Assembly: GCA_036874045.1 (NCBI GenBank)
Contig: CM072339.1
Location: 12,655,501 to 12,719,500, forward strand
Origin: Cymodocea nodosa
Lineage: Eukaryota > Streptophyta > Magnoliopsida > Alismatales > Cymodoceaceae
Direction of reading: 5' to 3'
DNA length: 64,000 bases
Every line of letters starts with the position of its first letter. The stretch's first letter is position 1. The position numbers and the translations under genes are program-made. The notes beneath the pieces were generated by a model. The model was given only the letters and a program-made list of their open reading frames with translations, ran no database searches and had not been told where the DNA came from. This document shows, in pieces, positions 3,751 to 54,911 of the stretch.

Positions 3751-3785
3751 GATGATGTCAAAACCTAATAAGTCAAATAATTTCT

Positions 3786-10816: not shown

Positions 10817-12642
10817 TGTTTGGATAGTTTTGTTTACTTCTGTTTTTACTTGTTTAATTTGTCTTTATGTTTATATCAATAATTACTTTTAGAAGTAAAC
10901 TAACAACTTTTCACACAAATTAGATATTAATTCCAATTTGTATTTTAACTACAAGTGCACAGTGTATATTGTATTTGTATGCAAGTATAGGTTGATCCCA
11001 CTAAGAGTTGAGTAAGAATTGTATACTGTCCCGATTTTTATATTGGAGTTTATGCATGTTTAGTTAAGCACTCTATTGAATTACAGTTAACACAATGGAT
11101 CTAGTTCGTTGTGTTATGGATAACTCAACGGACTAACCTCGTAGACTTAAGTTAACTCCACAAGTCTATCTTTCCAATTAAATACTGCATTTACAGAGGA
11201 ATTCCATAGATTGTAAATAACATCAACTAAGCTCTTTAATGCTAGTTAAGATTAGATTTATCATTAAGCAACACTAACATTTGGATATTTCAAACAGTAA
11301 CCATTAAAATCTTTAAGTATTTGGAACAAATCAATTTTAGTAAACTGTAAAAATATTATCTATTTTCTGAATCAAACAAACATAAAACATTCACAATATT
11401 GACAATGATAACATTAATCACGATACAAAACAAACAATACAACACTTTAATACTAAATGTAAACACAAATAAGTTGTTGTTTTTGGTATTTTTGTTTTGA
11501 TATGTTCTTGAAGATGAATGAAATGTGAAATGTAAAAATCTCTATCGATAGTAAAAACTTCTGTCATTACATGCAACGCGATTACACCACTGAAAACTTA
11601 ATCACTTATAATCCTATCTCCTCTCCCTATGGAATTGCAAGTCCAAAATTGTAAGATGATCTCCTCTTCCGCATATTGGCATCAACTCGAAACTACGGCT
11701 AGAAGCTTTACAATCTTTTGAGATATGAGTCGGTGCTTGGTGAAAATGGCTTCCCTTCCTGTGACACAATCACTCCTCGCAATGGTTGTCAGGCACCGTG
11801 TTTAGCTTAGAATCAACCCAACATCAGAAAAGTATCCTCATAGACCTCCGATGGTTGGTGATTATGGTGGTGGTGTGGAGCTTCAAGGAACTTCCAATGC
11901 TGCCTACAGTTAGCGTAGTTCTCGACCCTTTGTACACACACTTTTTCTGTCTTTTATATTTCTTACAGTAGTAACTGCTCCTACTTAAATGATCAGTTGG
12001 ATTTCCTTCATTCATATCAATGATGGTGATTTCTTCTTCCTTCCACGAGTGAATTCCTGCGTGATACGTGCAATTGTGGTTTTCCTTTGAATGTCCTATT
12101 TCTGTAACCGCTATAGTGGCATATTAGAAAATATATGGTTTGTGGAGTCACAGATAACTTAACAGACTTCCTTCGTTGATTTAACTATAAAACACGTGCA
12201 ATAAAGAAATAAGTTACTAACATAACGCGTTACCTTAGTGTGTATTCATGTAACTCAACATATATAGTAATGCTAACTTAACGAGTTATACATGTGCAGC
12301 TCATGTGACATAATAAAGCATTTAAATTCAACACATGCATAAATCTAACTTAACGAGTTTAGATATACAACTTACAGTTCTTACTCACTAACTCAACGAG
12401 TTGTTACTGTGTACCTGCATATTCTTTTAGCATTTAAAACATAACTATTCGGTACATAAAATATAACCCTCCAAAATAACGACAATTCAGATACTTAAGA
12501 CTTAAAAACCTATAATTTACCAACAGTTCATAAAATATACTAAATTAATGCTAATTCCTGAAAATTATGCAAATTCTTTCATTAAAGCATATAATAGTGC
12601 AATTATAACATAATGGCTTAATTCTCATATGATAAGCTAAAT
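10817..12642 (-). repeat. GF-family LTR, 5' end missing
   Basis: On the minus strand the LTR ends ...TATCCAAACA at 10817. Its 3' half has the word GATCAACCTATACTTGCA near 10985-11005, matching the gypsy GA LTR end, which is why I place GF with gypsy. It was inserted into the C3 integrase with flank GTCAT. The start of the LTR is lost at 12642, where a C3 LTR begins. A small frame starting MNEGNPTDH begins at 12015 on the minus strand. Confidence 0.8.
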
Positions 12643-13865
12643 TGTTAGGTATTTAATTTTGATGATATATGCTTTATTAACGTTTTTAAATAAGTCTACA
12701 TAATATTCTCTAAGTATATTTCTCTAAGTATAATAGTTAACAGATTATCAGAAAGTTTCAGTTTTATGTCGGATAAATTAAAGATTTCCGAAGAGTTAGA
12801 TTTGCAATAGTTAAACTTTCGGATAGTTAACGTTTCGGATAGTTAAACTTTCAGATAGTTAACGTCTCATTTTTGTCGAATACTTTATGTTAAAAACTCA
12901 TATAGTTAAGTTATCTACACGTGTGTTTTTAATGTTTTAAGTTGTCACATGTTTTTCATGTGCGTTCGGTAATGAAAAATCGAATAGTTAGATAACTGTT
13001 CAAGTTTTTATATGCATGAATAGATAACTGTTCGAGTTTTATAAAAGGACTAACAAATAGATAAGTTTCTTTGTTTAGTCATGTGTTTTGCAAGTGCAAA
13101 AACTCGAAGAGTTAAAGGATAAGTGTTCGAGTTTTACAAGACTTAAAGGATAAGTGTTCGACTAAATCGAAGACTTAGAAGATATTCTACAAGACTCTAG
13201 GAAGATAAAGTTTTAGTGAATCTATGAAGTGGAGATCGTGGAAATTCAAAATGTTAGTGGAGAAAGTGGAAATTCAAATAGAAAGTAATTTGGATTAAAG
13301 AGAAAATTAGTACGTGGATTATGGATTAAGTGGATGAACATGCTAAACATGAAAGACAACAGAGTTCGACTACAAATAGAGAGTACGAGCTACATTATAG
13401 TAGGGGATCCCAATCTCGAAAACCAAGTCTGAATATTCAATCCAGATCCCTAACTGAAAAGTTAAGTTTGAATATTCATATTCTGAAAAGTTCTCCAACA
13501 TTAGAAGAAGTTTAGAATTCCAAGCAATTTCAGAAAAGGAGCTGCAAACGTAAGAAGTCTGGAAATTCAACAACTGGAGAAGAAGAGATACAGAAGCTGA
13601 GCAAAGACAAAGAAAGATCAAGTTTTATACAATTCTAAATTAGTTTTCAATAAGAGCTTTATTGTTATATTTGAATTGTATATCAAACATTTCTGTATCA
13701 AAACCGTCAAGAAGGGAATTGAGCTGAAAAGATATTATAAATTCTTTCCTTACATAAAGAATAGAATTTCATTTACGAGTGTTTTGTGCTCTTGTTTTAT
13801 CTGCTAGTATTTTAATTACTAAAGATACAATTCACCCCTCCTCTTGTGATATAGACGATCTTACA
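12643..13865 (+). repeat. C3-family LTR, plus orientation
   Basis: Starts TGTTAGG and ends GACGATCTTACA, with CACCCC at about 13834. It matches the LTR at 2772-3736 over its length. It has no internal region attached and no matching five-base flanks (TAAAT before, AACTG after), so it is a solo LTR whose flanks were later rearranged. It contains the CGGATAGTTAA array at about 12760-12880. Confidence 0.85.
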
Positions 13866-13979
13866 AACTGGTCTAGCTAATTATACCACATTATACCACA
13901 TTCCTAATTGAATTTTATCATATTCTGTAGATGGTGGTTTAGCTATATCACTCGGTATAGGCAATATTTCTATAAAGTC
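13866..13979 (-). pseudogene. Fragment of F-box gene region
   Basis: From about 13890 the minus strand matches 41277-41370, covering the words EILPIPSD and PPSTE and the ATTAGGAATGTGGTATAA sequence of the F-box pseudogene at 40579-41671. It is only about 90 bases long, between a C3 LTR and a C1 LTR. It shows that the F-box segment exists in more than one transposon context. Confidence 0.7.
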
Positions 13980-15280
13980 TATAGGATCGTATGGCTACAC
14001 AAGAGGGGGGTGAATTGTGTTTTTCAATATTTTCGAATATAATTGAAACTTTAACACTCAAAAACAAGTCGAGACATTGTTTTCATAAAATCATTTTTAT
14101 TCAAGGTTTCAATTACAATATACAATTCAATTCTCCTTAGAAATTGTAGATGCAATTATATATCGATACCATGTTTTATCTATACAATTTCATAACTACA
14201 AACAGAGAAAACTAATTTACGAAATTTAAAACAATTCTCCTTGTTTGAAATCTTTCTTCTTCTTCTTTTTCTTCTTCAGCAATTCTTCAGTGATGAATAT
14301 CTAGTATTTCTCTGCTTCACTGAATTTGCTTTCTCCTGATACTTCAAATCTTCAGTGACATAAATCTGACCTTTTCTGCTTCACTAAATTTTCTTCCACC
14401 TGATACTTCAAATCTTCAGTGACATAAATCTAACCCTTTCTACTTTATTGAATTTTCTTCCATCTGAGAGCTTTTCCCCGAAAGGTCTTTTTGATCCCTA
14501 AAAAGATTTGTCATTTGATGTGTAGGGATAACTGATCAATGAGAATTCTATGCCTTTTATACTGTATCTTCATTTCATGCATATCCTCTACATTTAATCA
14601 CTATCAGTCTTCCACTTCTTCACGTCTTTTCTTTTTCCTTCATCGAAATACACATGTTCTGACCCACGTTTACATTTCGAATTTTCTTTAATCATCAATC
14701 CTGGATTTCTAAAAAATTTCCTGCAAAATAAACTTTCTCGTCCAAAATTTTTCATCAAGCGTAATAAGAAGTCGTTACTTTAATGTTAACAAAACGAGTA
14801 AAGAAAGCATATATATAACTTAACGTTTCTAACTTAATGAGTTCCTCATGTGCCAATTCACGTGACAAGTACTGTAGCTAACTCAACGAACTAAGTCTGT
14901 GGTGTTATGCTAACTCAACAAACCATCTCTGTGGTGTTACGATAAGTCAACGAAACCATCTTCGTTGTATTAGGATAACTCAACGAACTAGTAATAAACA
15001 AATGTTTTTATAATAACAATTTTACCACGTGCAAAAAATAACAACTTAAGTTTATAACACTAACCTAACGCATTACCTTAGTGTTCAATATAGCAACTCA
15101 ATGCGTTTAGTTATGTTAATTTAACGAGTTAAACATGTGCACCTCACGTGATACAATATAACATTCGTAACTTATAATTTCACCACGTGTATAATACTAA
15201 CTTAACGAGTTCATCACTTCTTTTACTCACTAACTTAACGAGTTCTCACGTGACCTATTTTAACCCTTAAGCCTTTAACT
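13980..15280 (-). repeat. C1 copia 3' LTR, truncated
   Basis: Matches the C1 5' LTR starting at 21551 from the terminal CGATC word through the GAA-rich U5 and the CACGTG-bearing U3. The terminal TG has become TA at 13980. It stops abruptly at about 15280 within the U3 and is joined to the post-pol spacer, so the U3 start and polypurine tract are lost. It contains two 64-base U5 units at 14336-14463. Confidence 0.85.
14336..14463. repeat. 64-base U5 tandem unit, two copies
   Basis: Each unit starts CTGATACTTCAAAT and runs through TTCACT.AATTTTCTTCCA. The 5' LTR of the same element has three units (21910-22101) plus a diverged one; the solo LTR at 22215-23978 has one. Confidence 0.85.
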
Positions 15281-15984
15281 TTAAAAATTGGTTTGAAAAA
15301 CTTGAATCATATAAGAGCTTTCTAATGTACCTGTGTAATGAGCTTTCAGTCAAAATCTCAAATCTAATTAGGACCTTAGGTTGCCAGATTTAAAGAATCC
15401 TTTTTGAGGACAACAATCCTTACATACCTATCTACTCAAGTACAAAAGGCTCATGATCAAACTGATCAATAAACTCTCAAAGATTTTCACTTTATAAGCA
15501 CTTTTCATTTTAAGCACAAAATATATATATTTCATTAATATAGTTGCAATAAAACACAAATCTCATACAATTTTTACGTCTATGATTTTACTGAAAATAT
15601 GAATTAGTTTCATTAAGCTCATACTTTTGATTAATAGTTTAAGATGATTTACATATAACTTATTCTACAAGTTTAATCAATCAAGTCAAATTTATGTATG
15701 ATCATATGCACTTTTCTCGATTCAAAGAAAACACTTAATCAAAATTTCAGAATTTTAAAAGTATTTATTGATTTTCATTTACACTTTCACTTAAAATCAT
15801 GAAAACCATTAAAATTGTTAACCTACTTAAAATCAATAAGATACTACTATGATTTTACAATAAATACATAGTATCTTAAGCAGCAGTTTAGATATTACTT
15901 AGATATTTATGATAAGTATATAATATCTATGAGGTAACTAACATCATCAACAATATTTATCTTTTTATGTGGAGTTTAAGCATT
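15281..15984 (-). other. C1 post-pol spacer, shared with F-box element
   Basis: Non-coding. On the minus strand it reads collinearly with plus-strand 42370-43010. Clear shared words are AAGTATGAGCTTA, TATGAGATTTGTGTTTTA, TTGATCATGAGCCTTTT and GAGTAGATAGGTATGTAAGG. It therefore links the C1 element to the tail of the F-box-bearing element. Confidence 0.7.
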
Positions 15985-22214: not shown

Positions 22215-23978
22215 CGTAGGATAGTATGACTACACAAGAGGGGGGTGAATTATGTTTTTTAATATTTTCGAATATAATTGAAACTTTAAAACTCAAAAAC
22301 AAGTCAAGACATTATTTTCATAAAATCATTTTTATTCAAGGTTTCAATTACAATATACAATTCAATTCTCCTTAGAAATTGTAGATGCAATTATATATCG
22401 ATACCATGTTTCATCTATACAATTTCATAACTACAAACAGAGAAAACTAATTTGCGGAATTTAAAACATTTCTCCCTATTTGACATCTTTCTTCTTCTTC
22501 TTCTTCTTCTTCTTTCTTCTTCAGAAATTCTTCAGTGATGAATATCTTGTCTTTTTATGCTTCACCGAATTTGCTTTCTTCTGATACTTCAAATCTTCAG
22601 TGACGTAAATCTTACCTTTTAAGCTTCACTAAATTTTCTTCCACCTGAGAGATTTTCCCCGAAGAGGTGTTTTTGATCCTTGAAAAGATATTTCTTTTGG
22701 TGTGCAGGGATAGTTTGATCCTTGAAAAGATTTTTCATTTTGTGTGCAAGGATGGTTTGATCAACGAGAACTCTATGCCTTTTATACTGTATCTTCATTT
22801 CATGCATATCCTCCACGTTTAATCACTACCAATTTTCCACTTCTCCACGTCTTTTCTTTTTCCTTCATCGAAACACACACGTTCTGACCCATGTTTATAT
22901 TTCGAATTTTCTTTAATCATCAATCTTGGATCTCTGAAAAATTTCTTGCAAAATAAACTTTCTTGTCCAAAAATTTTTCATCAGTGTAATAAGTAGTCGT
23001 TACTTTAATGTTAACTAAACGAGTAAAACAAGTAGATATTAACTTAACGTTTCTAACTTAATGAGTTCCTCATGTGCCATTTCACGTGACAAGTACTGTA
23101 GCTAACGGAACGAACTATCTTCGTGGTGTTATGGATAACTCAATGAACCAGCTTAACCTTTCTTTCGGAAGGTTAAATGCTAACTCACCGAAAATAATTT
23201 AAGTTTCAGATAGTTACAGTTGTAAGTCTCCGAAAAACCCTTTTTACCATAAAACTAGTGAGACATGTGTCATGACCTGAAACCATGACTTAAGTTACCT
23301 TTCGGATAGTTACAGTTGTAAGTCTCTAAAAAGCTCTAACTCACCAATTCAGTAATAAACAAATGTTTATATAATAAGAATTTTACCACGTGCAAAAATA
23401 ACAACTTAAGTTTATAACACTAACCCAACTCGTTGCCTTAGTGTTCAATATAGCAATTCAACATGTTTAGTTATGCTAACTTAACGAGTTAAACATATCC
23501 ACCTCACGTGATACAATATAACATTCGTAACTTATAATTTCACCACGTGTATAACACTAACTTAACGAGTTCGTCTCTTCTTTTACTCACTAACTTAACA
23601 AGTTCTCACGTGACCTATTTTAACCTTTAAGCCTCTAACTCAACGAGTTCTCACGTGACCTCTATACAAATAACACTCTAACTTAACGAGTTGTCTTAGC
23701 GTGCACTGTTCATGATACAGAAGATATAACTTTAAAACTTATCATGCTTTTCAATAAAAACACACGTTAACTTAACGTTTAGTTAAATGAGAAATTAATG
23801 CAATGAAACGACTAGTTATTAACTTAATATAATTTCAGATCCAATACAAACAAGTATTTATGTCAGTAAGCTTTTTCTGTATTAATTGATTATTTTCATT
23901 TCTTTTCACAAGCAATAGTAATTGAGTAAATATGATTATTTTCATTCAGCACACATCATCAAAACAAAATACTCAACA
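22215..23978 (-). mobile_element. Solo C1 LTR nested in C1 5' LTR
   Basis: A complete LTR of 1,764 bases. The minus strand starts TGTTGAGTATTTTG and ends ATCCTACG (terminal CA mutated to CG). It is flanked by perfect five-base target duplications ATTTC (22210-22214 and 23979-23983), and the host LTR sequence resumes without loss on the other side. No internal region remains, so it arose by recombination between two LTRs after insertion. It contains one U5 64-base unit. Confidence 0.95.
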
Positions 23979-24230: not shown

Positions 24231-26151
24231 TGTTAGGAATTTTGTTTTGATGATATATGCTACTTTTTCGACCGGCCTAAGCGGTGGAACGGATGGTCTT
24301 GGCTACTATTCCTCAGGAACTGGTCTTTCAGCAGCCAGCTCTACAACTACAGGTTCTTCAGCTACTTTACTCTATTGCTCCCAGATTGCCCATCGGGCAT
24401 GTCCACCAATATGTCATACAAATCATAATCTAGATTTGCATCGGATCAGTTCTAGGGAAACTTCATTGTTTGTTCATTATTTTATCAGTTAATTTTGATG
24501 ATGAAAAACGTGTAGTTTAATTATTTCTGTAATACATTAGTAGTCTTTTTACTCAAATGAATTTTGGCTAACTGCTATGTACTTAAAGTCTTTTAAATTA
24601 GATTTAGGCAGGTTATTTTGTCTATAGTGTATTGATTAGAGAGTTAATTTATAAGTCACCGAACAAAATAGGACAAATCAGATGGTTAAGCTTCTCTCCT
24701 AGTTTTTCGGACAGTTATATTAGTAACTATCCAAAAAGTATTTATCTTCGATGAGTTAAGTCTTTTTATGTCAGGATATAACTTTTATGGTAAGTATCCA
24801 CAATCCCTTTAGTTTCAGATAGTTAAGGATTTCTTTCCAGATAGTTAGCTGTTTCTCTAATTTAATGTATTTTCAGTTACTTTCTTCTGAAGGACACATG
24901 TTAGTCTCTCATTGCTTGATTTAAGTGACTTTTCGGAAGGTTACGATGTAACTATCCGAAAACTCTTAAGAATCAGAGAGTTACCTTCAGTAAGTATTCG
25001 AAATTGGTTTTTATGCTTCAGATAGTTAATTTTTTTATTATTTCTGACTTAAGTGACTTTTCGAAAGGTTACCTGTGTAACTATCTGAAATGACTTAAGG
25101 ATCGGAGAGTTATCTTTTATAAGTATCCGAAACGTGCCTTCTCTATTGGATAGTTTATTTTTAATATTTTATAATGCTGTTTTAGAAGGACACGTGTTTC
25201 AATTTTAATACATGACTTAAGTGGTCTTTCGGTATGTTAGGTCTATCTATCTAAAATGATTTTGAGTTTCGGCAAGTTATCCTTTTAAGTCTCCGATTTT
25301 CTAAAAGCCTCTGAAGATTTTATTTTTACAGAAACTACAACTATTATTAATTGACTAACCTTTATGGCAAGATATCTTTTGATTGCAGATCTCGACTTTA
25401 TTATGATTGAAGGTTGCTGGAAATGAATTACTGCATAAGGCATCTAACCATTTCAGAATTCTTTCTACCTATGCAAATCACGAAGGAAAAATAAAAAGGT
25501 TAAGGAAAAATTGTCTGCTCAGCAATTCTACAAACATTTTGAAGATTCGTCTGCAGCAAATTCTAGAAGATCAAAAGCTACAGATCAATCAAGAATTCTC
25601 CTCAGAGCTTCTTTGTCAACTCTTCATTGGAGTTGATCTGGTCTTGTGTGTCGTTTTCATTTTGAGTCTGTGACTCTTGGTTTTAAACTGATTTCTCGTT
25701 TGCTTTAAAACCTTAACTCACAAGGGTGTTGCAAGTATACCTTCACAAGGTTAGGGCCTTGGTGAAGAGAGTGAAGTGTGATACTTCACTTGCTCAAGAT
25801 TGGGGTCTTGAGTACACAAAGTTGGTGTTTTGTGTGAGGTTTTTGTTTAGCCTTTAAAAACATCTGTAAGGTTGTTGCTTAGTCTACAAAAGTAACTTGT
25901 TTAAGGTTTGTGCTTAGCCTTAAAAGCCCTTAGTGGAATTCTCGAGGTTGTGGCCTTGAGGAGTGGACTACCCAATTTAGGGAACTACTATAAATCTTTT
26001 TGTGTTCTTTACTTTCTACACTGCAAGTTTTAATTTCAAAATAAATTAATTAGGGTTCATTAGTGTTAACAGCTTCCGAAGTTTTAAAAGCAAAATAAAT
26101 TTTATTAGGATACTATTCACCCCCCCTCTAGTGTGCCATTCGATCCTTTCA
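24231..26151 (+). repeat. C4 copia 5' LTR
   Basis: Starts TGTTAGGAATTTTG and ends GATCCTTTCA, followed at once by a primer site. A CACCCCCCC run lies at about 26119-26126. It contains several CGGATAGTTA and TAACTATCCGAA words in inverted pairs (about 24690-25270) and an ACACGTGT G-box at about 25190. It holds an unusual GC-richer insert at 24253-24482. Length is about 1.9 kb. Confidence 0.9.
24253..24482. repeat. GC-richer insert within C4 LTR
   Basis: A segment visibly richer in G and C than the surrounding LTR, bounded on both sides by the words TTTTGATGAT (24244 and about 24495). It looks like a short foreign piece inserted just after the LTR start with local duplication of the LTR sequence. 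A Ser/Thr/Gly-rich frame (24247-24492, plus) crosses it. I do not recognise a family and do not call it a gene. Confidence 0.5.
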
Positions 26152-26165: not shown

Positions 26166-26203
26166 TAGTTATCTCTGTAATAGATTTAATCAATCTGAGA
26201 TCA

Positions 26204-35703: not shown

Positions 35704-35706
35704 ACT

Positions 35707-38462: not shown

Positions 38463-40101
38463 TCCTAACAAACATTAATCACAATACAAAACAAACAATA
38501 CAACACTTTAATACTAAATGTAAACATAGATAATTTGTTGTTTTTGGTTTTTTTTTTTTGATATGTTCTTGAAGATGAATGAAAGGTGAAATGTAAAAAT
38601 CTCTATCGATAGTAAAAAAAAACTTCCATCACTACATGGGATGAAAACTTAATCACTTACAATCTTGCCTCCTCTCCTTATAGAATCATGAATTAAGAAT
38701 TGTAAGATGATCTCCTCTTCAGCTTACTAGCATCAACCCGAAACCAAGGCTAGAAGCTTTAGGATCTCCTAAGATATGAATCGGTGCTTGGAGAAAATGT
38801 CTTCCCTTCTCGCGACGCAATCACTCCTCATAGTGGTTGTCAAACACTATGTTTTGCTCAAAATCGACCCAACATCAGGAAAGTATCCTCACAAACCTCT
38901 GATGGTTGGTGATTTTGGTGGTGGTGTGGAGCTTTAGGGAACTTCTGACGCTTCCTACAGTTAGTGCAGTTCTCCACCTCTATACACACCTTCTTCATCT
39001 TTTTTCTATTCTTTTATATTTCTTTCAGTAATAACTACTTCTGCTTAAATGATCAATTGAATTTCCTTCATTCATATCAACGATGGTGATTTCTTCTTTA
39101 TTCCACAAGTGAATTCCTACGTGATACGTGCAATCGTGGTTTTCCTTCAAATTTCCTATTTCTACAACTACTATAGTGGCATATTAGAAAATAAATGGTC
39201 TGTAGAGTTACAGATAACTCAACGAGCTTACTTCGTTGATTTAATTCTAAAACACGAGCAATAAAGAAATAACTCATAAGCTTACTAACATAACGTGTTA
39301 CCTTAATGTATATTCAAGTAACTCAATGCATATAGTTATGCTAACTTAACGAGTTGTACATGTGCAGCTCACGTGACACAATAAAGCATTTAAATTCAAC
39401 ACGTGCATAATGCTAACTTAACGAATTCAGATATATAACTTACGATTTTTACTCAATAACTCAATGAGTTCTCACGTGATCTTTTTATACCTTTAAACCT
39501 ATAACTCAATGAGGTTGCACATGACCTTTCAACAAAAAGAACACTAACTCAACAAGTTGTTACTATGCACCTACACATGATATAAATATATGCAAATAAA
39601 ATGGATCATGCTTAACATTATAAAACCACACTTAAATCAGGTTTTCAGATCACGACACATGTTCTTAATAAGTTTTATAAATACAAAGGATATTTCGGAT
39701 ACTTACAAATCTAACTATCCGATGCCTAGATGCATTTCGGATAGTTACCAAATAACTTACTGAAAATTCACTTAAGTCATGCATTGATGTTTCAACACGT
39801 GTACTTCAAGAAATAATAAAATATTCTTTAAGCATTTAAACATAACAGTCTAGTACATGCAATATAACTCTCCAAAATAACAAAAGATTCAAATATTTAA
39901 GAATTTCAAAGCCTATAACTTATCGATAGTTCAGAAATGTACTTAATTCACGCTAATTCCTTGAAATTATGCAGATTCCTTCATTAAAGCATATAATAGT
40001 GCAATTATAACATAATGGCTTAATTTTCATATGATAAGCTAAATATTGTGCAATCAACTATCATTTAACCGTTAATATTATGCACTTTTTCATTCTAAAC
40101 A
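38463..40101 (-). repeat. GF LTR, 3' end missing
   Basis: The minus strand starts TGTTTAGAATGAAAAAGTGC at 40101 and runs to about 38463, lacking the 3' few hundred bases present in other copies. It includes the CACGTG-rich block (39340-39500), the 16-codon frame at 39028-39075, and the ATTCTAAACA terminus. Confidence 0.85.
39025..39075 (-). CDS. Conserved 16-codon leader frame in GF LTR
   Basis: ATG at 39075 and TGA at 39025-39027 encode MNEGNSIDHLSRSSYY. The same length and nearly the same peptide occur in the GF LTRs at 44259, 48506 and 59501. It may be an upstream frame in the LTR transcript. Function is unknown; it could simply reflect sequence similarity among copies. Confidence 0.35.
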   Translation of the reverse strand: MNEGNSIDHLSRSSYY

Positions 40102-40356: not shown

Positions 40357-40578
40357 ACTAAATGAAGTAGTATAACTGAAGCAAATATATATAATATTGT
40401 AAGTAGAAAAATATAAAAAGAAAAAAAATGTAAGTTAATTGTAGTTAGTAGTATCGTAGAGTTATTACATAACTCAACGAACTTAGTCCGTTGAGTTATG
40501 ACCTAACTCTACGAGGGTAAGTAAGTAGCTATGTTAATTTTATCTTTGTTAAATTTTGTTTATACAGAATCACAACAG
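40357..40578 (+). other. Leader before F-box pseudogene
   Basis: Contains inverted words AACTCAACGAACTTAG and CCGTTGAGTTATG (about 40471-40500), and TTTATACAG at 40559-40567, which looks like a splice acceptor just before the coding start. Confidence 0.5.
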
Positions 40579-41671
40579 ATGGAATTGATGAAATTACCAC
40601 TAGATGCACTGAGGGAAGTACTGAGTAACTTATCAACTAAAGATCTGTGCAGATTGTGTTGTGTGTCAAAGGAAATTAAAGAATGTGTTAGAGGAAAATA
40701 TTTTCATAGACTACAGGCTACAAAAATGACTAATATTAGAGGTGGATTTTTATGGAAGTCATTTAAACGTAGTTCAATCAGCTATAAATATCTGAATATG
40801 GAAGAAACTACTGGAATTCCACCCAATACATTAGAAGGAATAGATCATATTATGGGGATAGATGAAGGATTAATTATTTACAAAACCAAACCAAGGTATG
40901 CAATTCTGTTTCCTGATATTTTGGTTAGAAATCCTATCACTAGAGAAGAATGGAATATAGGAAGGCCTAATAGATTTGAAGTACCAACTGAAAATTGTGG
41001 GTCAACATTAACATTTTCTGATAAAAATTTGACAATTCCTGAAAAATTGTATTATTGGAGATCAACTGGAAATTGGGATGAAGATTTATGTTTAAGTGTG
41101 TATAATTTTCTAAATAAATCTTAGACTGAAAATACTATGATATATCTAGGACAAAAAATGTTAATTAACAACATACATGTCATACTTGATGGATATATAT
41201 ATCTAGTCACAGATATATCAGTTGCATTTAGATCTGATTTATACATAGTAAGCATAAACAGTTATAATGATGAATTTATAGAAATATTACCTATACCTAG
41301 TGATATAGTTGAACCACCATCTACAGAACATGATAAAATTTAATTAGGAATGTGGTATAATGAATATGATTATCCTACTTTATGTTTGATCAAATGGTGG
41401 GATGAACTAATGAAATTTCAAATATGGATTATGAAATACCTAAATGAATGTAAATGGGAAAAGGAATATATTTAAATATCTGTAGAAATAGAAACAACTA
41501 CATTATCTTAGAACAAAAAAGGATCCCTTTCTACATTTCAATTTATTAATGGTAATACACTTATATTTAGTATTGATAACATACTACAAGTTTACAAGTT
41601 AAAAAAGAGAGTAGACTGCATTAAAACAAAATTAATAGCAAGAAGAATTATGCCTAAAAAGTTTTCTTAGA
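40579..41671 (+). pseudogene. F-box protein pseudogene carried in a retrotransposon tail
   Basis: From ATG at 40579 the frame reads MELMKLPLDALREVLSNLST, then KDLCRLCCVSKEIKECV. This is a clear N-terminal F-box, the domain that links substrates to SCF ubiquitin ligases. The frame then continues through blocks such as LVRNPITREEW (an F-box-associated-type NPITRE motif) to about 41671, some 363 codons, a usual size for plant F-box proteins. It is broken by in-frame stops at 41122, 41341, about 41474 and about 41508, with no frameshift seen. It lies upstream of a gypsy-like tail, polypurine tract and GF 3' LTR on the same strand, and part of it recurs at 13866-13979. It is therefore likely a host gene captured by a retrotransposon, now decayed. 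A chance insertion next to a host pseudogene is the alternative. Confidence 0.75.
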
Positions 41672-43511
41672 ATGACACGTTTATTTCATTTGTCACAACT
41701 TTTCAATCATGTTCTTAAACTGTGATTTTATACTGTTAATGTTGTGTGTATTCTACATTTATGTTTAGAAGAAAAAAAAACACAAAATATCAATCCAGTT
41801 TGTTGGTATCTATTATGGGAAACCAACTAGCTTACTTGTGAGCCACCAAAGGCATAGAAGCCTAGGTTTCACACAAGACACTAATTTAACAATTTATGTT
41901 TTGTTATTTTGTTATATATTTTGCTTTTATTTGTGAATAAAAAGTTTTTCAGAATCAAAAATTCAGAAGATATTGAAAGAGATACAAAAGAACAATGTAT
42001 GTAATTAATTACTTAGCCTGAATTTACAATTAAACTTAGTTCGTGGAGTTATTCATTAACTCAATAAATTAAGTTTGTTGAGTTAGGTGCTAAATCAATG
42101 AAACAATATTCATGTCTGCTAATATTTACTGTATTTACCGTAAAATCTTTTACATTGAGGACAATGCAAAATGTAAGTATGGGGGGAAGGTAATTAAATT
42201 AAATCCAAGTAATTTTGTTAATTAGAGGAACTAGGATGGTGCTGCAAAATTCTGTGGAAATTGAAAATTTTACTGTGAGATGAATTTGTTGTAACTAACT
42301 GAAATTTCCTATAGCTATCTGATAATTGAAACTATAAAAAAAAAACAACATTATAACTGCTTGAATGTTATATTTAGAATCTTATATAAGATGCTACAAA
42401 TTTTACTATTATACAAATCTGGATATAGTATCTTATGTTTTTGCTGAATTCTATGAGTTTAATAGTTTCACAATTTTAAAAGCAATCAGAATGCTTAACT
42501 GAAACTCAGGAAATGATCTGAAATTCTGAAAGAGCTAAAATGTTGATTTTTGGATTAAATGAAATACATATGATCAAGGATACATTTAATTTGATTGATT
42601 AAATCTGTAAAATGATTTATGTGTAAATCTTATTAAACTACAGAAAAAGTATGAGCTTATTGATATGGATTCATGTTTTCAGTAAATTATAGAAGTAGGA
42701 TTATATGAGATTTGTGTTTTACTACATCTGTATTAGTGAAATATGTATATATACTGTGTTGAAAAGTAAAAGAAAAAAAGTAAAGAAAAACTTTGAGAGT
42801 TTATTGACTTGTTTGATCATGAGCCTTTTATACTTGAGTAGATAGGTATGTAAGGATTGTTGACCTGAATAAGGACTTTAAATCTGGCAACTTAAGATCC
42901 TGATCAGATCTGGGATTGTTGACTAAAAGCTCGATACATAGGTACACTAGAAAGCTCTTGTATGATTCAAGCTTTTCAAATTAACTTTTAAAGTACAAAT
43001 ATGCATATACTGTTCTAAAAAGATAAAAGTGTTTTGTGAAATACAAATATCTTTTGAATCGAGTATATTTTTTTCTATTATCTAAGATTACTGAAGTATG
43101 AATCTAAATTAGACTTTTGAAGTTGTTTATTTGAGATACAATTCATTATTCTTCTTATTTTAATCATATTGAGTTGGATTATGTTTTGATTCATATGTAG
43201 TTGAAATTTATTCTGGAAATCATATTGGAAAATTCAAGATGATAGATGTTTAAGAAAAAAAATGATAATATAATTACCACCTATGTGATGCTAATATATT
43301 TTGTATGTAATTTACATATGTTTTAAATATATTTGCAGGTTGAAGAGGAGAAAATAATGTTAAATTAGATTACTGAATTAATACATAATATAATTATAGT
43401 AATCTAATCTATGTATTCTGAAGTTACAAAATGAAGAATTAGTTCTATCACTATAGAAAGACCAACTAGTTAGATCTTAGTAGTTTGCTAAGGGACTAGC
43501 AAAATTTAAGT
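41672..43511 (+). other. Retrotransposon tail after F-box pseudogene
   Basis: No gene seen. At 42155-42190 lies GAGGACAATGCAAAATGTAAG followed by TATGGGGGGAAGG (given here in two parts), a gypsy pre-tract motif also seen at 28085-28122. From 42370 to 43010 the sequence matches the C1 post-pol spacer at 15281-15985 on the other strand. From 43480 the words TTTGCTAAGGGACTAGCAAAA lead into the final polypurine tract. Confidence 0.7.
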
Positions 43512-43521
43512 ACGGGGGAAG
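43512..43521 (+). other. GF polypurine tract
   Basis: ACGGGGGAAG directly abuts the LTR start TGTTTAGAATG at 43522, which identifies the following LTR as a 3' LTR of a plus-strand element. Confidence 0.88.
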
Positions 43522-45478
43522 TGTTTAGAATGAAAAAGTGCATAATATTTACGGTTAAATGATGTTTAATTGGATAATATTTAGCTTATCTTATGAGCAT
43601 TACGTCTTATATTATAATTGCATTATTATATGTTTTAATGAAAGAATTTGCATAATTTTAGGAAATTAACGTTAATTAAGTACATTTCTGAACTATCGAT
43701 GAATTACAACTTTTTAACTCCTAAGTATCTGAATTTTCTATTATTTCGGAGAGTTATATTGCATGTACCGGATAGCTATGTTTTAAACGCTTAAAGAATA
43801 TTTTATTATATCCTGGAGTACACGTATTGTAACCTTAATGCATGACTTAAGTGAATGTTCAGTAAGTTATTTGTTAACTATCTGAAATGCATCTGAGCAT
43901 CGGATAGTTAGGTTTGTAAGTATCCGAAATATCTGAATTCGTTAAGTTAGGTTTATGCATGTGTTGAATTTAAATGCTTTATTATATCACATGAGCTACA
44001 CATGTTTAACTCATTAAGTTAGCATAACTATACACATTGTGTTAGTGTTATAAGCTTATAAGTTATTTCTTTATTGCACGTGTTTTATAGTCAAATTAAC
44101 GAAGTAAGTCCGTTGACTTACACTAACTCCATAGACCATTTATTTTCTAATATGCCATTATAGCAGTTACAGAAACAAGGAATTCAAAGAAAAACCACGA
44201 TTGCACGTATCACGCAAGAATTCACTCATGGAAAGAAGAAGAAATCACCATCGTTGATATGAATGAAGGAGATCCAACCGATCATTTAAGTAGAAGCAGT
44301 TATTACTGAAAGAAACATAAAAGAATAAGAGAAAGATGAAGATGTGTGTGTGTATAAGTGGAGAACCGCGCTAATGCAGAAAGTGTTAGAAGTTCCCTGA
44401 AGCTCCACACACCACCAAAATCACCAACCATCGGAGGTTTGTGAGGATACTTTCCAGATGTCGAGTTAATTCCGAGCCAAACACGATGACTAACAACCAC
44501 TGTGAGGAGTGATCGCGTCGTAGGAAGGGAAGTCATTTTCACCAAGCACCGACTCATATCTCAAGAGATTGTAAAGCTTCTAGCCTTGGTTTCGGATTGA
44601 TGCTAGTATGCTAAAGAGGAGATCATGTTACAATTCTTGATTCGCGATTCTATAGGGAGAGGAGGCAAGATTGTAAATGATTAAGTTTTCAGTGGTGTAA
44701 TCGCGTCACATGTAGTGACGAAAGTTTTTACTATCGATGGAGATTTTTACATTTCACCTTTCGCTCATCTTCAGAAACATATCAAAACAAAAATACCAAA
44801 AACAACAAATTATATGTGTTTACATTTAGTATTAAAGTGTTGTATTGTTTGCTTTGTATCGTGATTAATATTATCATTGTCGGTATTGTGAATGCTTTAT
44901 ATTTGTTTGATTCAGAAAATAGTTTTATAGTTTACTGAAATTGAATCATCCTAGATACTTAAAGATTTTAATGGATACTGTTTGAAATATCTGAATGTTA
45001 GTGTTACTTAATGACAAATCTAATATTAACTAACATTAAAGAGATTAATTGATATTATTTACATTCTATGGAACCGCCCAATGGTTGGTCGAATTCCTTT
45101 GTAAATAATAGTATTTAACTGGAAAGATAAGCTCGTGGAGTTAACTTAAGTCCACGAGGTTAGTCCGTTGAGTTAACTATAACTCCACAAACTAAGTCCA
45201 TTGTGTTAACTGTAACTCAATGGAGTGATTAACTAAACACACATAAACTCCAATATAAAAATTGACATAGTACACAATTCTTACTCAATCTCTATGGGAT
45301 CGACCTGTACTTGCACACAAATACAATATACATTGTGCACTTGCAGTTAAAATACAAATTGGACTTAATATCTAATTTGTGTGAAAGGTTGTTTGTTTAC
45401 TTCTAAGAGAATTTATTAATACAAGCATAAAAAAAATCAAACAAGTTTATAATGTAACTTAACAACCCCAAACAAACA
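43522..45478 (+). repeat. GF 3' LTR
   Basis: Starts TGTTTAGAATGAAAAAGTGC and ends about ...CAAACAAACA. It carries the CGGATAGTTA words (43905-43925), TTAACTCATTAAGTTAGC, the 16-codon frame at 44259-44309, an antisense frame at 44303-44557, and near the end GATCGACCTGTACTTGCACAC shared in form with the GA LTR end. The matching plus-strand 5' LTR is not present; a minus-oriented GF LTR lies upstream instead. Confidence 0.88.
44259..44309 (+). CDS. Conserved 16-codon leader frame in GF LTR
   Basis: ATG 44259, stop TGA 44307-44309, peptide MNEGDPTDHLSRSSYY. The same frame is in the copies at 39075, 48506 and 59501; in the copy at 12015 the stop has become a Cys codon and the frame runs on. Role is unproven. 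Confidence 0.35.
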   Translation: MNEGDPTDHLSRSSYY

Positions 45479-46244
45479 CATGTCGAGACTTGGAGACGTG
45501 ACTTAAGTTATCTTTCAGAAGGTTAGATCCTAACTATCTGAAATGAGTTTAAGTTTTAGATAGTTACGGTTGTAATTCTCTAAAAACTCCTGATAACTCA
45601 CCGATCTAGTAAATAAATGTTTTAAATAATAAGGTATTTACCACGTGTAATAACAATAACTTTAAGTTTATAACGCTAACCTAACACGTTGTCTTAGTAT
45701 TCAATATAGCAACTCAACGTATTTAGTTATGTTAACTTAACGAGTTAAACATGTGCAACTCACGTGATACAATATAACATTCATAAACTTTAATTTCACC
45801 ACATGCATAATACTAACTTAACGAGTTCGTCTCTTCATTTTAACATTTGTTCACTAACTTAACGAGTTCTCACGTGACCTATTTTAACCTTTAAGCCTAT
45901 AACTCAATGAGGTCTAACGTGACCTTTATACAAATATTGCACTAACTCAACGAGTTATCTTAACGTGCACTGTACATGATACAGAAAATATAACTTTAAA
46001 ACATATCATGCTTTACAATAAAAACACACGTTAACTTAACGTTTAGTTAAATGAAAAGTTAGTATAACTTAACGACTAGTTATTTAACTTAGCATAATTT
46101 CAAATCCATTACAGACAAGTATTTATATCAGTAAACTTTTTCTGTATTAATTGATATTCTAAATTTACTTTCACAAACAATAGTAATTGAGTAAATATGA
46201 TTACATTCATTTAGCACATATCATCAAAACAAAATACTTGACAC
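45479..46244 (-). repeat. C1-family LTR fragment
   Basis: Matches the U3 part of the solo LTR at 22215-23978, from the ACATGTGTC...GACTTAAGTTA region to the terminal CAAAATACTTGACA. The R-U5 half was removed where the GF LTR now ends. Confidence 0.8.
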
Positions 46245-47325: not shown

Positions 47326-48884
47326 GATTTGTTGTTATGCATATATTAATAAATTTCTTTAAGGTAACAAATAACTTTTCACACAAATTAGATATTAAGT
47401 CCAATTTATATTTTTAACTACAAGTGCATAGTGTATATTGTATTTGTGTGCAAGTATAGGTCGATCCCACAAAGATTGAGTAAGAATTGTATACTATTTT
47501 AATTTTTATGTCAGAGTGTATATGTGTTCAATTAAGCACTTCGTTGAGTTACTGTTAACTTAATGAACTTAGTTTGTGGAGTTACGGTTAACTCAACAAA
47601 CTATTCTTGTGGACTTAAGTTAACTCCACGAGCCTGCCTAGTAACTTCTAGTTAAATGTTGCGATTCATAAAGGAATTCGACCATCCATTGGGCGGTTCC
47701 ATAGAATGTAAATAACATCAATTAAGCTTTTTAATGTTAGTTAATCTGAGATTTGTCATTAATCAACACTAATATTCAGATATTTCAAATAGTAACCATT
47801 AAGATTTTTTAGTATTCTGTACGAATCAATTTCAGTAAACAATAAAACTATTTTCTATTTTTTAAATCAACTAAATATAAAACATTTACAATACTGACAA
47901 TGATAATATTAATCACGATACAAAACAAACAATACAACACATTAATACTAAATGTAAACATAGATAATTAGTTTTTTGGTATGTTCCTGAAGATGAATGA
48001 AAGGTGAAATATAAAAATCTCTATTGATAGTAAGAACTTTCATCAGTACATGCGACACGATTACACCATTGAAAACTTAATCACTTACAATCTCGCCTCC
48101 TCTCCCTATAGAATCGCTAACCAAGACTTGTAAGTTGATCTCCTCTTTAGTATATTGACATCAACCCGAAACTAAAGCTAAAAGTTTTACGATCTTCTAA
48201 GATATATGTCGGTGCTTAGTAAAAATGGCTTCCCTTCCTGCGATGCGATCACTCCTCACAGTGGTTGTCAATCACCATGTTTGGCTAAGAATTGACCCAA
48301 CATATGGAAAGTATCCTCACAGACCTTCAATGGTTGGTTGGTGATTTTTGGTGGTGTTGCGGAGCTTCAGGGAACTTTCGACGCTTCTTGTAGTTAGCAC
48401 GATCCTCCACCTTCACACACACTACTTCGTCTTTCTCCTCTTCTTTTATATTCTTTTAGTAATAACTGTTTCTGCCTATATGATCGGTTGGATTTCCTTC
48501 ATTCATATCAACAATGGTCATTTCATCTTCATTCCACAAGTTAATTCCTATGTGATACATGTAATCGTGGTTTTCCTTCGTATTTCCTGTTTCTACAACT
48601 GCTACAATGGCATGTTAGAAAATAACTGGTCCATGGAGTTAGTGTAACTCAACAAACTTACTTCGTTGACTTATCTATAAAACACGTGTAATAAAGGAAT
48701 AACTTATAAGCTTATAAGACTAACACAATGCATTACCTTAATGTATATTCAAGTAACTCAATGCGTATAGTTAAGCTAACTTAACGAGTTAAACATATGC
48801 AGCTCACATTACATAATAAAACATTTAAATTCGACACGTGCATAATTCTAACTTAATGAATTCAGATATTTCAAATAGTTACAA
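47326..48884 (-). repeat. GF LTR, first part, split by C1 element
   Basis: Runs from the LTR 3' end (approximate boundary 47326) through the GGTCGATCCCACAAAG word and the 16-codon frame at 48459-48506, to TACAA at 48880-48884, the target site of the C1 element. It resumes at 54912. Confidence 0.85.
48456..48506 (-). CDS. Conserved 16-codon leader frame in GF LTR
   Basis: ATG at 48506 and TAA at 48456-48458 encode MNEGNPTDHIGRNSYY, the same length as in three other GF copies. Confidence 0.35.
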   Translation of the reverse strand: MNEGNPTDHIGRNSYY

Positions 48885-50522
48885 TGTTGAGTATTTTGTT
48901 TTGATGATGTGTGCTGAACAAAAATAATCATATTTGCTCAATTACTATTGCTTGTGAAAAGAAATTAAAATCATCAATTAATACGGAAAAAGCTTACTGA
49001 TATAAATACTTATCTGTATTAGATCTGAAATTATACTAAGTTAATAACTAGTCGTTTCGTTGCATTAATTTCTCATTTAACTAAGCGTTAAGTTAACGTG
49101 TGTTTTTATTGAAAAGCATGATATGTTTTAAAGTTATATTTTCTGTATCATGAACAGTGCATGTTTAGACAACTCGTTAAGTTAGAGTTTTGTTTATATA
49201 GAGACCACGTGAGAACTCGTTAAGTTAGTGAGTAAAAGAAGAGACGAACTCATTAAGTTAGTATTATACACATGGTGAAATTATAAGTTACGAATGTTAT
49301 ATTGTATCACGTGAGTTGCACATGTTTAACTCGCTAAGTTAACATAACTAAACGCATTGAGTTGCTATATTGAACACTAAGGTAATGCGTTAGGTTAGTG
49401 TTATAAACTTAAGTTGTTATTTTTGCACATGGTAAAATTCTTATTATAAAAATATTTGTTTATTACTGGTTCGTTGAGTTATCGTAACACAACGGAGATG
49501 GTTCGTTAAGTTATTGTAACACAATGAAGATAGTTCGTTGAGTTAGCGTAACACCACGAAGATAGTTCATTGAGTTAGCTATAGTACTTGTCATGTGAGT
49601 TGGTACATGAGGAACTCATTAAGTTAGAAATGTTAAGTTATATATATGCTTGTTTAACTCGTTTAGTTAACATTAAAGTAACGACTTCTTATTACGCTTG
49701 ATGAAAGATTTTGGACAAGAAAGTTTATTTTGCAGGAAATTTTCAGAGATCCAGGACAGATGATTAAAGAAAAATTCGAAATGTAAACGTAGGTCAAAAC
49801 GTGTATATTTCGATGAAGGAAAAAGAAAAGACATGAAGAAGTGGAAGACCGATAGTGATTAAATGTAGAGGATATGCATGAAATGAAGATATAGTATAAA
49901 AGGCATAGAATTCTCGTTAATCAGTTATCCTTGCACATCAAATGAAAAATGTTTTTAGGGATCAAACTATCCCTGCACACAAAACGAAAAATCTTTTCAA
50001 GGATCAAAAACACCTTTCGGGGAAAAGCTTTTAGGTGGAAGAAAATTCAGTGAAGTAGAAAAGGTTAGATTTATGTCAATGATGATTTGAAGTATCAGAT
50101 GGAAGATAATTCAGTGAAGCAGATAAAGGTAAGATTTATGTCGCTGAAGATTTAAAGTATTAGAAGAAAGCAAATTCGGTGAAGTAGAGAAAGACAAGAT
50201 ATTCATCACTCAAGAATTGCTGAAGAAGAAAGAGAAGAAGAAGAAGAAAGATCTCAAATAGGGAGAAATGTTTTAAATTCCACAAATTAGTTTTCTCTGT
50301 TTGCAGTTATGAAATTGTATAGATGAAACATGGTATCGATATATAATTACATCTACAATTTCTGAGGATAATTGAATTGTATATTGTAATTGAAACCTTG
50401 AATAAAAATGATTTTATGAAAATAGTGTCTCGACTTGTTTTTGAATTTTAAAGTTTCAATTATATTCGAAAATGTTGAAAACCACAATTCACCCCCCTCC
50501 TGTGTAGCCATACGATTCAACA
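48885..50522 (+). repeat. C1 5' LTR
   Basis: TGTTGAGTATTTTG to CGATTCAACA, 1,638 bases. U3 has CACGTGAG and TTAAGTTAG words; a TATAAAAGG box is at 49895-49903; U5 carries the repeated GATTTATGTC...GAAGTAT units and a GAAGAAGAAG stretch near 50220-50250; CACCCCCC is at about 50489. Confidence 0.93.
49895..49903 (+). promoter_or_regulatory. LTR TATA box
   Basis: TATAAAAGG precedes GCATAGAATTCTCG. The same word is found in every C1 LTR copy (for example 54326-54334 here, and in reverse at about 14553 and 22191). It probably sets the start of the element transcript. Confidence 0.7.
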
Positions 50523-50536
50523 AGTGGTATTAGAGC
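50523..50536 (+). other. C1 primer binding site
   Basis: AGTGGTATTAGAGC directly after the LTR; one mismatch to the initiator methionine tRNA complement. Confidence 0.9.
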
Positions 50537-50722
50537 TTTGTTAATAATTTTTGATATAAAATCGATACCAACTTATTTAATTTTATTGCTTATTCTGCCT
50601 TCTTTGTTTTTAAATAGAAATTTTATATCTAAGCATTCGTTTAACTTTCTTGATTTAAGGCTCAAGTTCTTTTAAAGTTTTAAACTGTTTAAAATCAAAT
50701 AGGTTGAAAAATCTAAGGTAAG

Positions 50723-53160: not shown

Positions 53161-53293
53161 ACAAACAATAGAAATAAGCTTAAGTGAACTTAAGTCAACA
53201 AACAAGTTTGTTGAATGAAAAGTTAACCCAACGAAGGTGCTTTGTTGAGTTAAATATATTTCATAATTGATTTAATATGGTTTTGTCACCATT

Positions 53294-53307
53294 AAAAAGG
53301 GGGAGAT
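53294..53307 (+). other. C1 polypurine tract
   Basis: AAAAAGGGGGAGAT directly before the 3' LTR start TGTTGAG. Confidence 0.9.
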
Positions 53308-54911
53308 TGTTGAGTATTTTGTTTTGATAATGTATGCTAAACGAAAATAATCATATTTGCTCAATTACTATTGCTTGTGAAAAGAAATTAAAATCATCAA
53401 TTAATATAGAAAAAGCTTACTAATATAAATACTTGTCTGTACCGGATCTGAAAGTATACTAAGTTAATAACTAGTCATTTCATTGCATTAATTTCTCATT
53501 TAACTAAACGTTAAGTTAACGAGTGTTTTTATTGAAAAGCATTATATGTTTTAAAGTTATATTTTTTGTATCATGAACAGTACACATTTAGACAACTCGT
53601 TAAGTTAGAGTTTTGTTTGTATAGAGATCACATGAGAACTCGTTAAGTTAAAGGCTTAAAGGTTAAAATAGGTCACGTGAGAACTCGTTAAGTTAATGAG
53701 TAAAAGAAGAGACGAACTCGATAAGTTAGTATTATACATGTGGTGAAATTATAAGTTATGAATGTTATATTGTATCACGTGAGTTGCACATGTTTCGTTA
53801 AGTTAACATAACTAAACGCGTTGAGTTGCTATATTGAACGCTAAGGCAATGCATTAAGTTAGTGTTATAAACTTAAGTTGTTATTTTTGCACATGGTAAA
53901 ATTCTTATTATAAAAACATTTGTTTATTACTAGTTCGTTGAGTTATCGTAACACAACGGAGATGGTTCATCGAGTTAGCGTAACACCACGGAGATAGTTC
54001 ATTGAGTTAACTACAGTACTTGTCATGTGAGTTGGCACATGAGGAACTCATTAAGTTAGAAACGTTAAGTTATATATATGCTAGTTTTACTCGTTTAGTT
54101 AACATTAAAGTAACGACTTCTTATTACGCTTGATGAAAGATTTTGGATGAGAAAGTTTATTTTGTAAGAAATTTTCAAAGATCCAGGACTGATGATTAAA
54201 GAAAAATTTGAAATGTAAACGTAGGTCAAAACGTGTGTTTTTCAATGAAGGAAAAGAAAAGACGTGAAGAAGTGGAAGACTGATAGTGATTAAATGTGGA
54301 GGATATGCATGAAATGAAGATACAGTATAAAAGGCATAGAATTCTCGTTGATCAGTTATCCCTACACATCAAACGAAAAATCTTTTCAAAGATCAAAAAC
54401 ACCTTTCAGGGAAAAGCTCTCAGGTGGAAGAAAATTCAGTGAAATAGAAAAGGTCAGATTTATGTCACTGAAGATTTGAAGTATCAAATGGAAGATAATT
54501 CAATGAAGCAGATAAGGGTAAGATTTATGTCACTAAAGATTTAAAGTATCAGAAGAAAGCAAATTCAGTGAAGCAGAGAAAGACAAGATATTTGTCACTA
54601 AAGAATTGCTGAAGAAGAAAGAGAAGAAGAAGAAGAAAGATCTCAAACAGGGAGAAATGTTTTAAATTTTGCAAATTAGTTTTCTCTGTTTGCAGTTATG
54701 AAATTGTATAGATGAAACATAGTATCGATATATAATTGCATCTACAATTTCTAAGGAGAATTGAATTGTATATTGTAATTGAAACCTTGAATAAAAATGA
54801 TTTTATGAAAATAGTGTCTCAGCTTGTTTTTGAATTTTAAAGTTTCAATTATATTCGAAAATGTTGAAAAACACAATTCACCCCCCTCTTGTGTAGCCAT
54901 ACGATCCTACA
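53308..54911 (+). repeat. C1 3' LTR
   Basis: TGTTGAGTATTTTG to CGATCCTACA, 1,604 bases, similar throughout to the 5' LTR with scattered differences and a 34-base length difference. The TATA box is at 54326-54334. Confidence 0.93.

What the first reader, a model, noticed from the sequence alone, without database searches (positions are those of the whole stretch)
12217..15255. Long U3 block shared between a gypsy-type LTR and a copia LTR
Seen directly: 12217-12420 in a GF LTR and 15055-15255 in the C1 copia LTR read side by side with the same ordered words: TAACGCRTTACCTTAGTGT, TAACTCAA, TTAACGAGTTA..CATGTGCA, CTCAYGTGA, TAACTTAACGAGTT and ACTCACTAACT. In other copies the match extends further (39300-39610 in GF against 23420-23755 in the C1 solo LTR), through TTCTCACGTGA, CCTTTAARCC and a final ATCATGCTT. 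GF and C1 otherwise have different ends, polypurine tracts and internal regions. A block of several hundred bases in common suggests exchange of regulatory DNA between LTR families of different superfamilies, not chance.
Basis: partly seen in the sequence, partly recalled or inferred. Interest (0 to 1): 0.78.

Follow-up and report, generated by a model that had tools for sequence, protein, structure and literature searches.

The report
Unrelated jumping genes share control sequences
In this plant genome two unrelated kinds of jumping gene carry the same stretch of control DNA, and the stretch contains a short two-part sequence that recurs about a quarter of a million times, as if several kinds of jumping gene answer to one common protein.

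Summary
Confirmed: a colinear block of about 0.4 kb in the upstream part of the C1 copia LTR aligns with the GF LTR (77% over 424 columns; 30 pairs score 83-272, shuffle maximum 40). In the window it is in 5 of 6 GF and 6 of 6 C1 copies. Apart from this block and a second small module the two LTRs do not align, so it was exchanged, not inherited; direction is open. GF is gypsy-like by its polypurine-tract region only. Block-free GF copies are common in the genome.

Beneath it lies something larger: a bipartite site, TAACT-N3-CGA. Window: 106, 1.2 expected. A 60-kb spaced genome sample: 69, 1.0 expected. Whole genome (374.6 Mb): 255,090, reversed control 11,883. Of gaps 0-8 only 3 is enriched; the gap sequence is free. 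It occurs in GF, C1, C2, C3 and one undecided region, mostly in one orientation, with flanks between families near random similarity. I read it as the target of one trans-acting protein, spread by module exchange and by independent gain. No function was tested.

The parts
12193..12404 (-). Shared block in GF LTR copy A (LTR 10829-12642, sense -); internally shortened
39241..39640 (-). Longest form of the block in GF LTR copy B (LTR 38471-40101, sense -)
43880..44085 (+). Block in GF LTR copy C (LTR 43522-45450, sense +), left part and an inner stretch missing
48683..48869 (-). Block in GF LTR copy D (LTR 47317-48884 continued at 54912-55288, sense -)
62920..63112 (-). Block in GF LTR copy F (about 61970-63519, sense -)
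57508..60725 (+). GF copy E: no block, array of 136-bp units in its place
   Evidence: 39 further genomic places with the same junction listed
15019..15281 (-). Block in C1 copia LTR c13 (13982-15281), LTR cut at 15281
23380..23780 (-). Block in C1 LTR c22 (23983 down to 21551, rearranged)
45637..46044 (-). Block in C1 LTR fragment c45 (45559-46246)
49083..49438 (+). Block in C1 LTR c48 (48885-50522)
52098..52498 (+). Block in C1 LTR piece c51 (51909-52935)
53506..53902 (+). Block in C1 LTR c53 (53308-54911)
48885..54911 (+). C1 copia element, with an extra LTR piece inside, nested in GF LTR D next to the block; target duplication TACAA at 48880-48884 and 54912-54916
   Evidence: gag 50717-51157 Retrotran_gag_2
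39693..39802 (-). Second shared module (unit of about 136 bp, TAACTATCCGAAATGCATC type) in GF B
23140..23339 (+). Second module in C1 c22, antisense to the LTR
   Evidence: 72% over 159 bp to GF B
45476..45591 (+). Second module at the edge of C1 c45
24702..25296 (+). Array of the second module in LTR C3 (24230 to about 26150), followed by AGTGATATCAGAGC and a copia-like gag piece 26132-26572
   Evidence: Pfam gag matches there are below the curated cut-off
43470..43521 (+). Hairpin and polypurine tract before the GF C LTR (TTTGCTAAGGGACTAGCAAA...ACGGGGGAAG|TG), like that of the gypsy element 26546-37888
   Evidence: 40 genomic places with the junction listed, window included
40454..40514 (.). 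61-bp dyad with three TAACT-N3-CGA sites just upstream of the F-box ORF
40525..41124 (+). F-box ORF (stop to stop), repeated genome-wide, in several places about 2.8 kb before a GF LTR junction

Best explanation
The shared stretch is a homologous module of about 0.4 kb in the upstream (U3) part of the LTR that passed, probably once, between the ancestors of a copia family (C1) and part of a gypsy-like family (GF), and has since been copied as part of both LTRs. Its working content is a cluster of TAACT-N3-CGA sites (in the sense strand of the LTR mostly TCG-N3-AGTTA) with CACGTG boxes, in C1 and GF B 200-900 bp upstream of a TATA-like box. The same site, in unrelated sequence contexts, is enriched in other LTR families and genome-wide. 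I think one DNA-binding protein recognises it, a host transcription factor or an element-encoded activator or anti-silencer, and that several LTR families gained it both by capturing modules and by independent accumulation. Shown: homology, positions, fixed gap, genome-wide excess, spread over families. Inferred: the protein, its role, selection, and the route of exchange; nested insertion of C1 into a GF LTR is seen in the window, template switching is the alternative.
For: Block: scores 83-272 against shuffle max 40; 77% over 424 columns; reciprocal clades, bootstrap 100, with 17 GF and 15 C1 core sequences, between-family identity 72.6-82.2%; block-free GF junction at 39 listed places besides the window, while 11 of 12 GF loci chosen by the polypurine-tract junction (window included) have a block hit. 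Motif: first of all 5-N3-3 words in the window (106 vs 1.2) and in a 20 x 3 kb spaced sample (69 vs 1.0); 255,090 in the genome vs 11,883 for the reversed pattern; of gaps 0-8 only 3 is enriched (106 and 69; the others at most 5 and at most 3); 17 gap sequences; in a survey of gapped words the strongest of three found at least twice in all 5 representatives. Flank identity between families 0.24-0.38, random places 0.29. Same orientation in 36 of 37 C1, 32 of 40 GF, 13 of 17 C2, 4 of 5 C3 sites. In the block, core columns of sites intact in C1 are 38 of 40 identical in GF, other columns 0.69, 0 of 404 shifts as high; sites intact in GF 24 of 24, 1 of 404.
Against: No binding, expression or methylation data exist here. 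The core conservation is partly built in: sites were picked by being intact in one family, and the aligner can pair repeated words. Many sites are copies within repeats: 106 window sites fall into 24-51 flank clusters depending on the threshold. Flanks among C2, C3 and the 6300-8371 region are somewhat more alike (0.35-0.38) than random, so some of those sites may share an origin. By likelihood a dyad word, AACT-N5-AGTT, scored higher in 4 of 5 representatives, there counted twice as a palindrome. Variants TAAGT and CGT are also in excess. Another GF LTR, in L072, has no block hit. Some GF copies have sites downstream of the U3 part, and the TATA choice is uncertain in GF. Direction is unresolved: C1 copies without the block were not looked for. 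One genome only.
Confidence: 0.72

Rival explanations
1. Plain capture: one insertion or recombination event put a C1 piece into a GF LTR (or the reverse); the motif is merely ordinary sequence of these repeats, amplified with them, with no shared factor.
For: Nested C1 in GF D; one clade per family on the block; many sites are repeat copies; thousands of first-look candidates per family query (4670, 4371, 3034).
Against: Sites in C2, C3, the 6300-8371 region and unassigned sample stretches keep the core and the gap length while flanks are at or little above random similarity.
Confidence: 0.2
2. The block is a separate small mobile element or satellite that landed in both LTRs.
For: Repeated words inside it; same block in two families.
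Against: In the window the 11 long hits are inside GF (5) or C1 (6) LTRs. In the 20 sample stretches the four longer hits have GF (L050 262 bp, L054 144 bp) or C1 (L040, L052) flanks; two short pieces (L042 55 bp, L049 71 bp) are undecided or C1. No inverted ends were noticed on reading the borders; no dedicated test was run.
Confidence: 0.04
3. Convergence alone: both LTRs built similar motif arrays independently; there is no homologous block.
For: The motif recurs in other families in other contexts.
Against: Long colinear alignment including non-motif words; masked alignment above the null in 28 of 30 pairs.
Confidence: 0.03
4. GF is really a copia family and the block is inherited.
For: GF begins with TGTT, commoner in copia (84%) than gypsy (24%) edges in a table of PMC11656987 (passages); no GF polymerase found.
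Against: Polypurine-tract region with hairpin like that of the gypsy element 26546-37888; the rest of the LTR does not align with C1; GF copies without the block exist.
Confidence: 0.05

Closest known systems
VANDAL/VANC target arrays of Arabidopsis (PMC5735166, passages seen; PMC10398659, abstract and outline seen)
   Same: Short motif (YAGTATTAY; AGTTGTCC/AGTTGTAC) repeated in non-coding parts of mobile elements; an unrelated element, AT9TSD1, shares the VANC6 motif; target arrays diverge fast.
   Different: There DNA transposons with a known protein; here LTRs of copia and gypsy-like families, a bipartite site with a fixed 3-base gap, no known protein.
Factor sites spread by mobile elements: E2F in Brassica (a passage of PMC11656987), PHERES1 sites (PMC6914339, title and start of abstract in a listing)
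   Same: One host factor's site carried by mobile elements, for E2F by several families.
   Different: No factor is known here; the sites sit in LTR families of two superfamilies and one homologous module is shared between them.
Template-switch chimeras of plant LTR elements: BARE2, VejuL, Angela complexes (PMC1950507, abstract and results section read)
   Same: Recombination between element RNAs is proposed to give chimeric elements and LTRs.
   Different: The model there is for RNAs of similar elements; here an inner LTR piece is shared across superfamilies.
Ty1/copia elements of angiosperms (TNT1-94-like pol hits)
   Same: C1 gag and pol domains, tRNA-like primer site, 5-bp target duplication.
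   Different: The pol fragment 17298-18134 is 47% identical to the best-scoring hit; in the 120 listed the highest figure is 54%, over 37% of the query.

Membership tests
Ty1/copia (for C1) | Copia-type gag and RVT_2 polymerase in the element | tested here: met
   Retrotran_gag_2 2.8e-26 (19858-21357) and 4.7e-13 (50717-51157), RVT_2 7.4e-18 (16360-17037)
Ty1/copia (for C1) | TG...CA LTR, tRNA-type primer site, 5-bp target duplication | tested here: met
   48885-54911 with TACAA repeats and AGTGGTATTAGAGC after the LTR
Ty3/gypsy (for GF) | RT-RNaseH-integrase order in the internal region | tested here: inconclusive
   No RT among ORFs of 110 aa or more in the 10 kb before two GF LTRs (three of six ORFs scanned); L071 is GF-like only in its last 260 bp and L072 is rearranged. 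Membership is not claimed
Ty3/gypsy (for GF) | Polypurine tract and 3' internal region like a gypsy element | tested here: met
   79.6% over 49 bp to the gypsy element 26546-37888, E 5e-6, plus 86.7% over 45 bp about 1.3 kb upstream
Ty3/gypsy (for GF) | Primer binding site | tested here: inconclusive
   The 3' end of the GF LTR could not be fixed
VANC-type target array | Short motif repeated in non-coding element DNA | tested here: met
VANC-type target array | Motif bound by a protein encoded in the element, causing loss of methylation | not testable with these tools
   no binding or methylation data
VANC-type target array | Same motif sequence as VANC21 or VANC6 | tested here: not met
   TAACT-N3-CGA is not YAGTATTAY or AGTTGTCC/AGTTGTAC; AGTT is common to its reverse complement and VANC6

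The most novel reading that the evidence does not exclude
LTR families of copia and gypsy-like origin in one plant form a single regulon: they carry one recognition site, TAACT-N3-CGA, at a quarter of a million places, trade LTR modules that hold it, and answer to one protein that activates or un-silences them all. The GF element also carries an F-box ORF behind the same sites, which could be a silencing suppressor of the community.
Probability: 0.3. Interest if true: 0.92.

Novelty: new variant of a known kind. Interest (0 to 1): 0.78.

Why it matters
Transfer of promoter modules between LTR families of different superfamilies would mean that the control region evolves separately from the coding region. 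A site with a fixed gap, shared by unrelated families and about 21 times more frequent genome-wide than its reversed control, makes a testable case that one factor drives or un-silences many elements at once, and that host genes near such LTRs could be drawn into the same control.

Tried and rejected
Chance, word-level convergence and a free-standing repeat were considered for the block. CACGTG boxes are enriched (46 vs 2.6), but their conservation between families was not clearly above the rest (61 of 404 shifts as high for boxes intact in C1, 5 of 404 for boxes intact in GF). A viral-contig scan for one 23-base spelling gave 0 matches. The F-box ORF found no homologue at E 0.001. Text search for six motif spellings found one unrelated paper. 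Ten text searches listed no title or abstract that reports this exchange or motif; only top rows of the held open-access library were seen, so this is no proof of absence. The status of 6300-8371 as an LTR was not settled: no clear LTR ends were found there, but it is repeated in L042. The plant was not identified; named protein hits are nearly all angiosperm.
Full report
The listed words are at the listed places, one with a first-letter difference in C1, and self-comparison finds 12216-12402 against 15026-15244 and 39284-39635 against 23419-23770 as colinear alignments. GF B and C1 c45 agree at 328 of 424 aligned columns. The 30 pairs of five GF copies with six C1 copies score 83-272; 300 shuffles reach 40 at most; the sixth GF copy, E, scores 33-51. 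With recurring words masked, 28 of 30 pairs exceed the masked null maximum; E exceeds it slightly in 3 of 6, which fits shared motifs outside the block.

What the families are. C1 is copia: gag and RVT_2 domains, a primer site AGTGGTATTAGAGC after the LTR, and an element 48885-54911 with TACAA target duplications inside a GF LTR. GF begins TGTTTAGAATG after a polypurine tract whose upstream hairpin resembles that of the gypsy element at 26546-37888 (RVT_1, integrase and RNase H domains). Forty genomic places with this junction are listed, window included. In the 10 kb before two of them no polymerase ORF of 110 aa or more was seen, but one stretch is GF-like only in its last 260 bp and the other is rearranged. 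GF may be non-autonomous; it is called gypsy-like, not gypsy.

How the block is distributed. In the window it lies at one place in GF copies A, B, C, D and F, in its longest form in B; the others look shortened by deletions between repeats. Copy E has 136-bp units there instead, with a 126-bp partial hit at the border. That is not a private loss: the E junction has 40 listed genomic places, 39 besides the window at 93-95%. Of 12 GF loci chosen by the polypurine-tract junction, 11 have a block hit; one (L065), cut short, has none. A further GF LTR, in L072, has none either. Of 30 loci chosen by the E junction, 27 show no block hit and three have C1-flanked pieces nearby. A tree of 17 GF and 15 C1 core sequences (21 of 22 loci given, L065 without a hit, plus 11 window copies) separates the families with bootstrap 100; between-family identity is 77.8% on average, within GF 87.6%, within C1 94.6%. 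Outside the two shared modules the LTRs do not align well, so the block did not come down from a common LTR. E is only a little further from the other GF copies in the downstream flank (78-84%) than they are from each other (81-87%), so gain in GF after the split from E and loss in E are both possible.

A second module. A unit of about 136 bp with TAACTATCCGAAA is found in GF copies B to F (none in A), in C1 c22 and at the edge of c45 in antisense, and as an array in LTR C3. C3 is called copia from a gag match to C1; its Pfam gag scores are below the cut-off. C1 and GF thus share two modules in different order and orientation.

The motif. A count of all 5-N3-3 words puts TAACT-N3-CGA first in the window: 106 against 1.2 expected. 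Of these 40 are in GF, 37 in C1, 17 in C2, 5 in C3, 2 in 6300-8371, 3 upstream of the F-box ORF, 2 elsewhere. Only a 3-base gap is enriched: 106, against at most 5 for gaps 0-2 and 4-8; in the genome sample 69 against at most 3. Seventeen gap sequences occur. Mean identity of flanks plus gap between families is 0.24-0.38, against 0.29 for random places; the pairs among C2, C3 and 6300-8371 are highest (0.35-0.38). Representatives of GF, C1, C2, C3 and the 6300-8371 region hold more sites than any of 300 shuffles; the LTR of the gypsy element, 1-1755 and 3740-6300 have none, its internal region has one. In a survey of gapped words over five representatives it is the strongest of three words found at least twice in all five, the other two being a variant and an overlap; 15 shuffle sets gave 0-2 such words, none with three or more G or C. 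In an earlier form of the survey the dyad AACT-N5-AGTT scored higher, in 4 of 5 representatives, counted on both strands. Variants with TG or CA in place of CG are in excess (47 and 38 against about 6), as decay of methylated CG would give; TAAGT (22 against 1.0) and CGT (18 against 1.1) variants are in excess too.

Genome-wide. Twenty stretches of 3 kb at round positions on 16 contigs hold 69 sites against 1.0 expected, and the motif is again the first word; 12 of 20 stretches have at least three. Ten of the 69 sites lie outside matches to the window. The whole genome holds 255,090, the reversed pattern 11,883.

How it may work. C1 c53 sites lie at LTR positions 290-784, before a TATAAAAG at 1019 that recurs in c48 and c22; GF B sites at 176-877, before one at 1084. 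Other TATA-like words exist in both, and GF C has a site at 1612. Sites face one way in 36 of 37 (C1), 32 of 40 (GF), 13 of 17 (C2), 4 of 5 (C3). In the block, core columns of C1 sites are 38 of 40 identical in GF, other columns 69%; part of this is built in, because sites were chosen as intact in one family. I infer an enhancer-like or anti-silencing array for one protein. Exchange may have gone through nested insertion followed by deletion, or template switching; the window shows C1 sitting in a GF LTR beside the block, which proves opportunity only.

Comparison. The nearest concept is the VANC system, where short motifs repeat in non-coding element DNA and an unrelated element shares a motif (PMC5735166, passages). 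The motif differs, and neither binding nor demethylation can be tested here. Factor sites carried by mobile elements, such as E2F, are also near (passage in PMC11656987). Chimeric elements by template switching are described for similar elements (PMC1950507). The U3 label is by position; general retroelement anatomy is recalled, from no call.

Limits. One genome, one window, one 60-kb sample; the genome search scores only 40 candidates for a DNA query; sites inside repeats are not independent.

Noticed in passing
window 40525-41124 and L073-L094: The F-box ORF is repeated: 40 places listed at 94-100% of 2999 first-look candidates; 5 of the 40 (window included) lie about 2.8 kb before a listed GF LTR junction, so GF elements appear to carry it. 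Among window plus 20 fetched copies mean dN is 0.061 and dS 0.137 (ratio 0.45, 210 non-independent pairs); 19 of 20 copies have an in-frame stop before the window's own stop.
   Followed up: partly
window 40454-40514: A dyad with three TAACT-N3-CGA sites directly upstream of the F-box ORF; 19 of 20 fetched copies have at least one site in their first 200 bases.
   Followed up: partly
window 26546-26905 and 37529-37888: Identical 360-bp direct repeats around a gypsy element that starts where a copia gag match ends (26548): it looks young. A Retrotrans_gag ORF lies downstream of its integrase.
   Followed up: no
window 15278-15781 and 42496-42994: Sequence like the GF 3' internal region abuts the truncated C1 LTR c13 at 15281, a chimeric junction.
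   Followed up: no
window 3115-3738, 12643-13286, 40102-40360, 46247-46757: Repeat family C2 (LTR-like ends) with simple arrays of TAACTATCCGAAA and AACTC-N3-GAGTT.
   Followed up: partly
G000 C1:2936661-2937625: Twelve TAACT-N3-CGA sites in 1 kb, all in one direction, with many different gap sequences, in an unexamined stretch.
   Followed up: no
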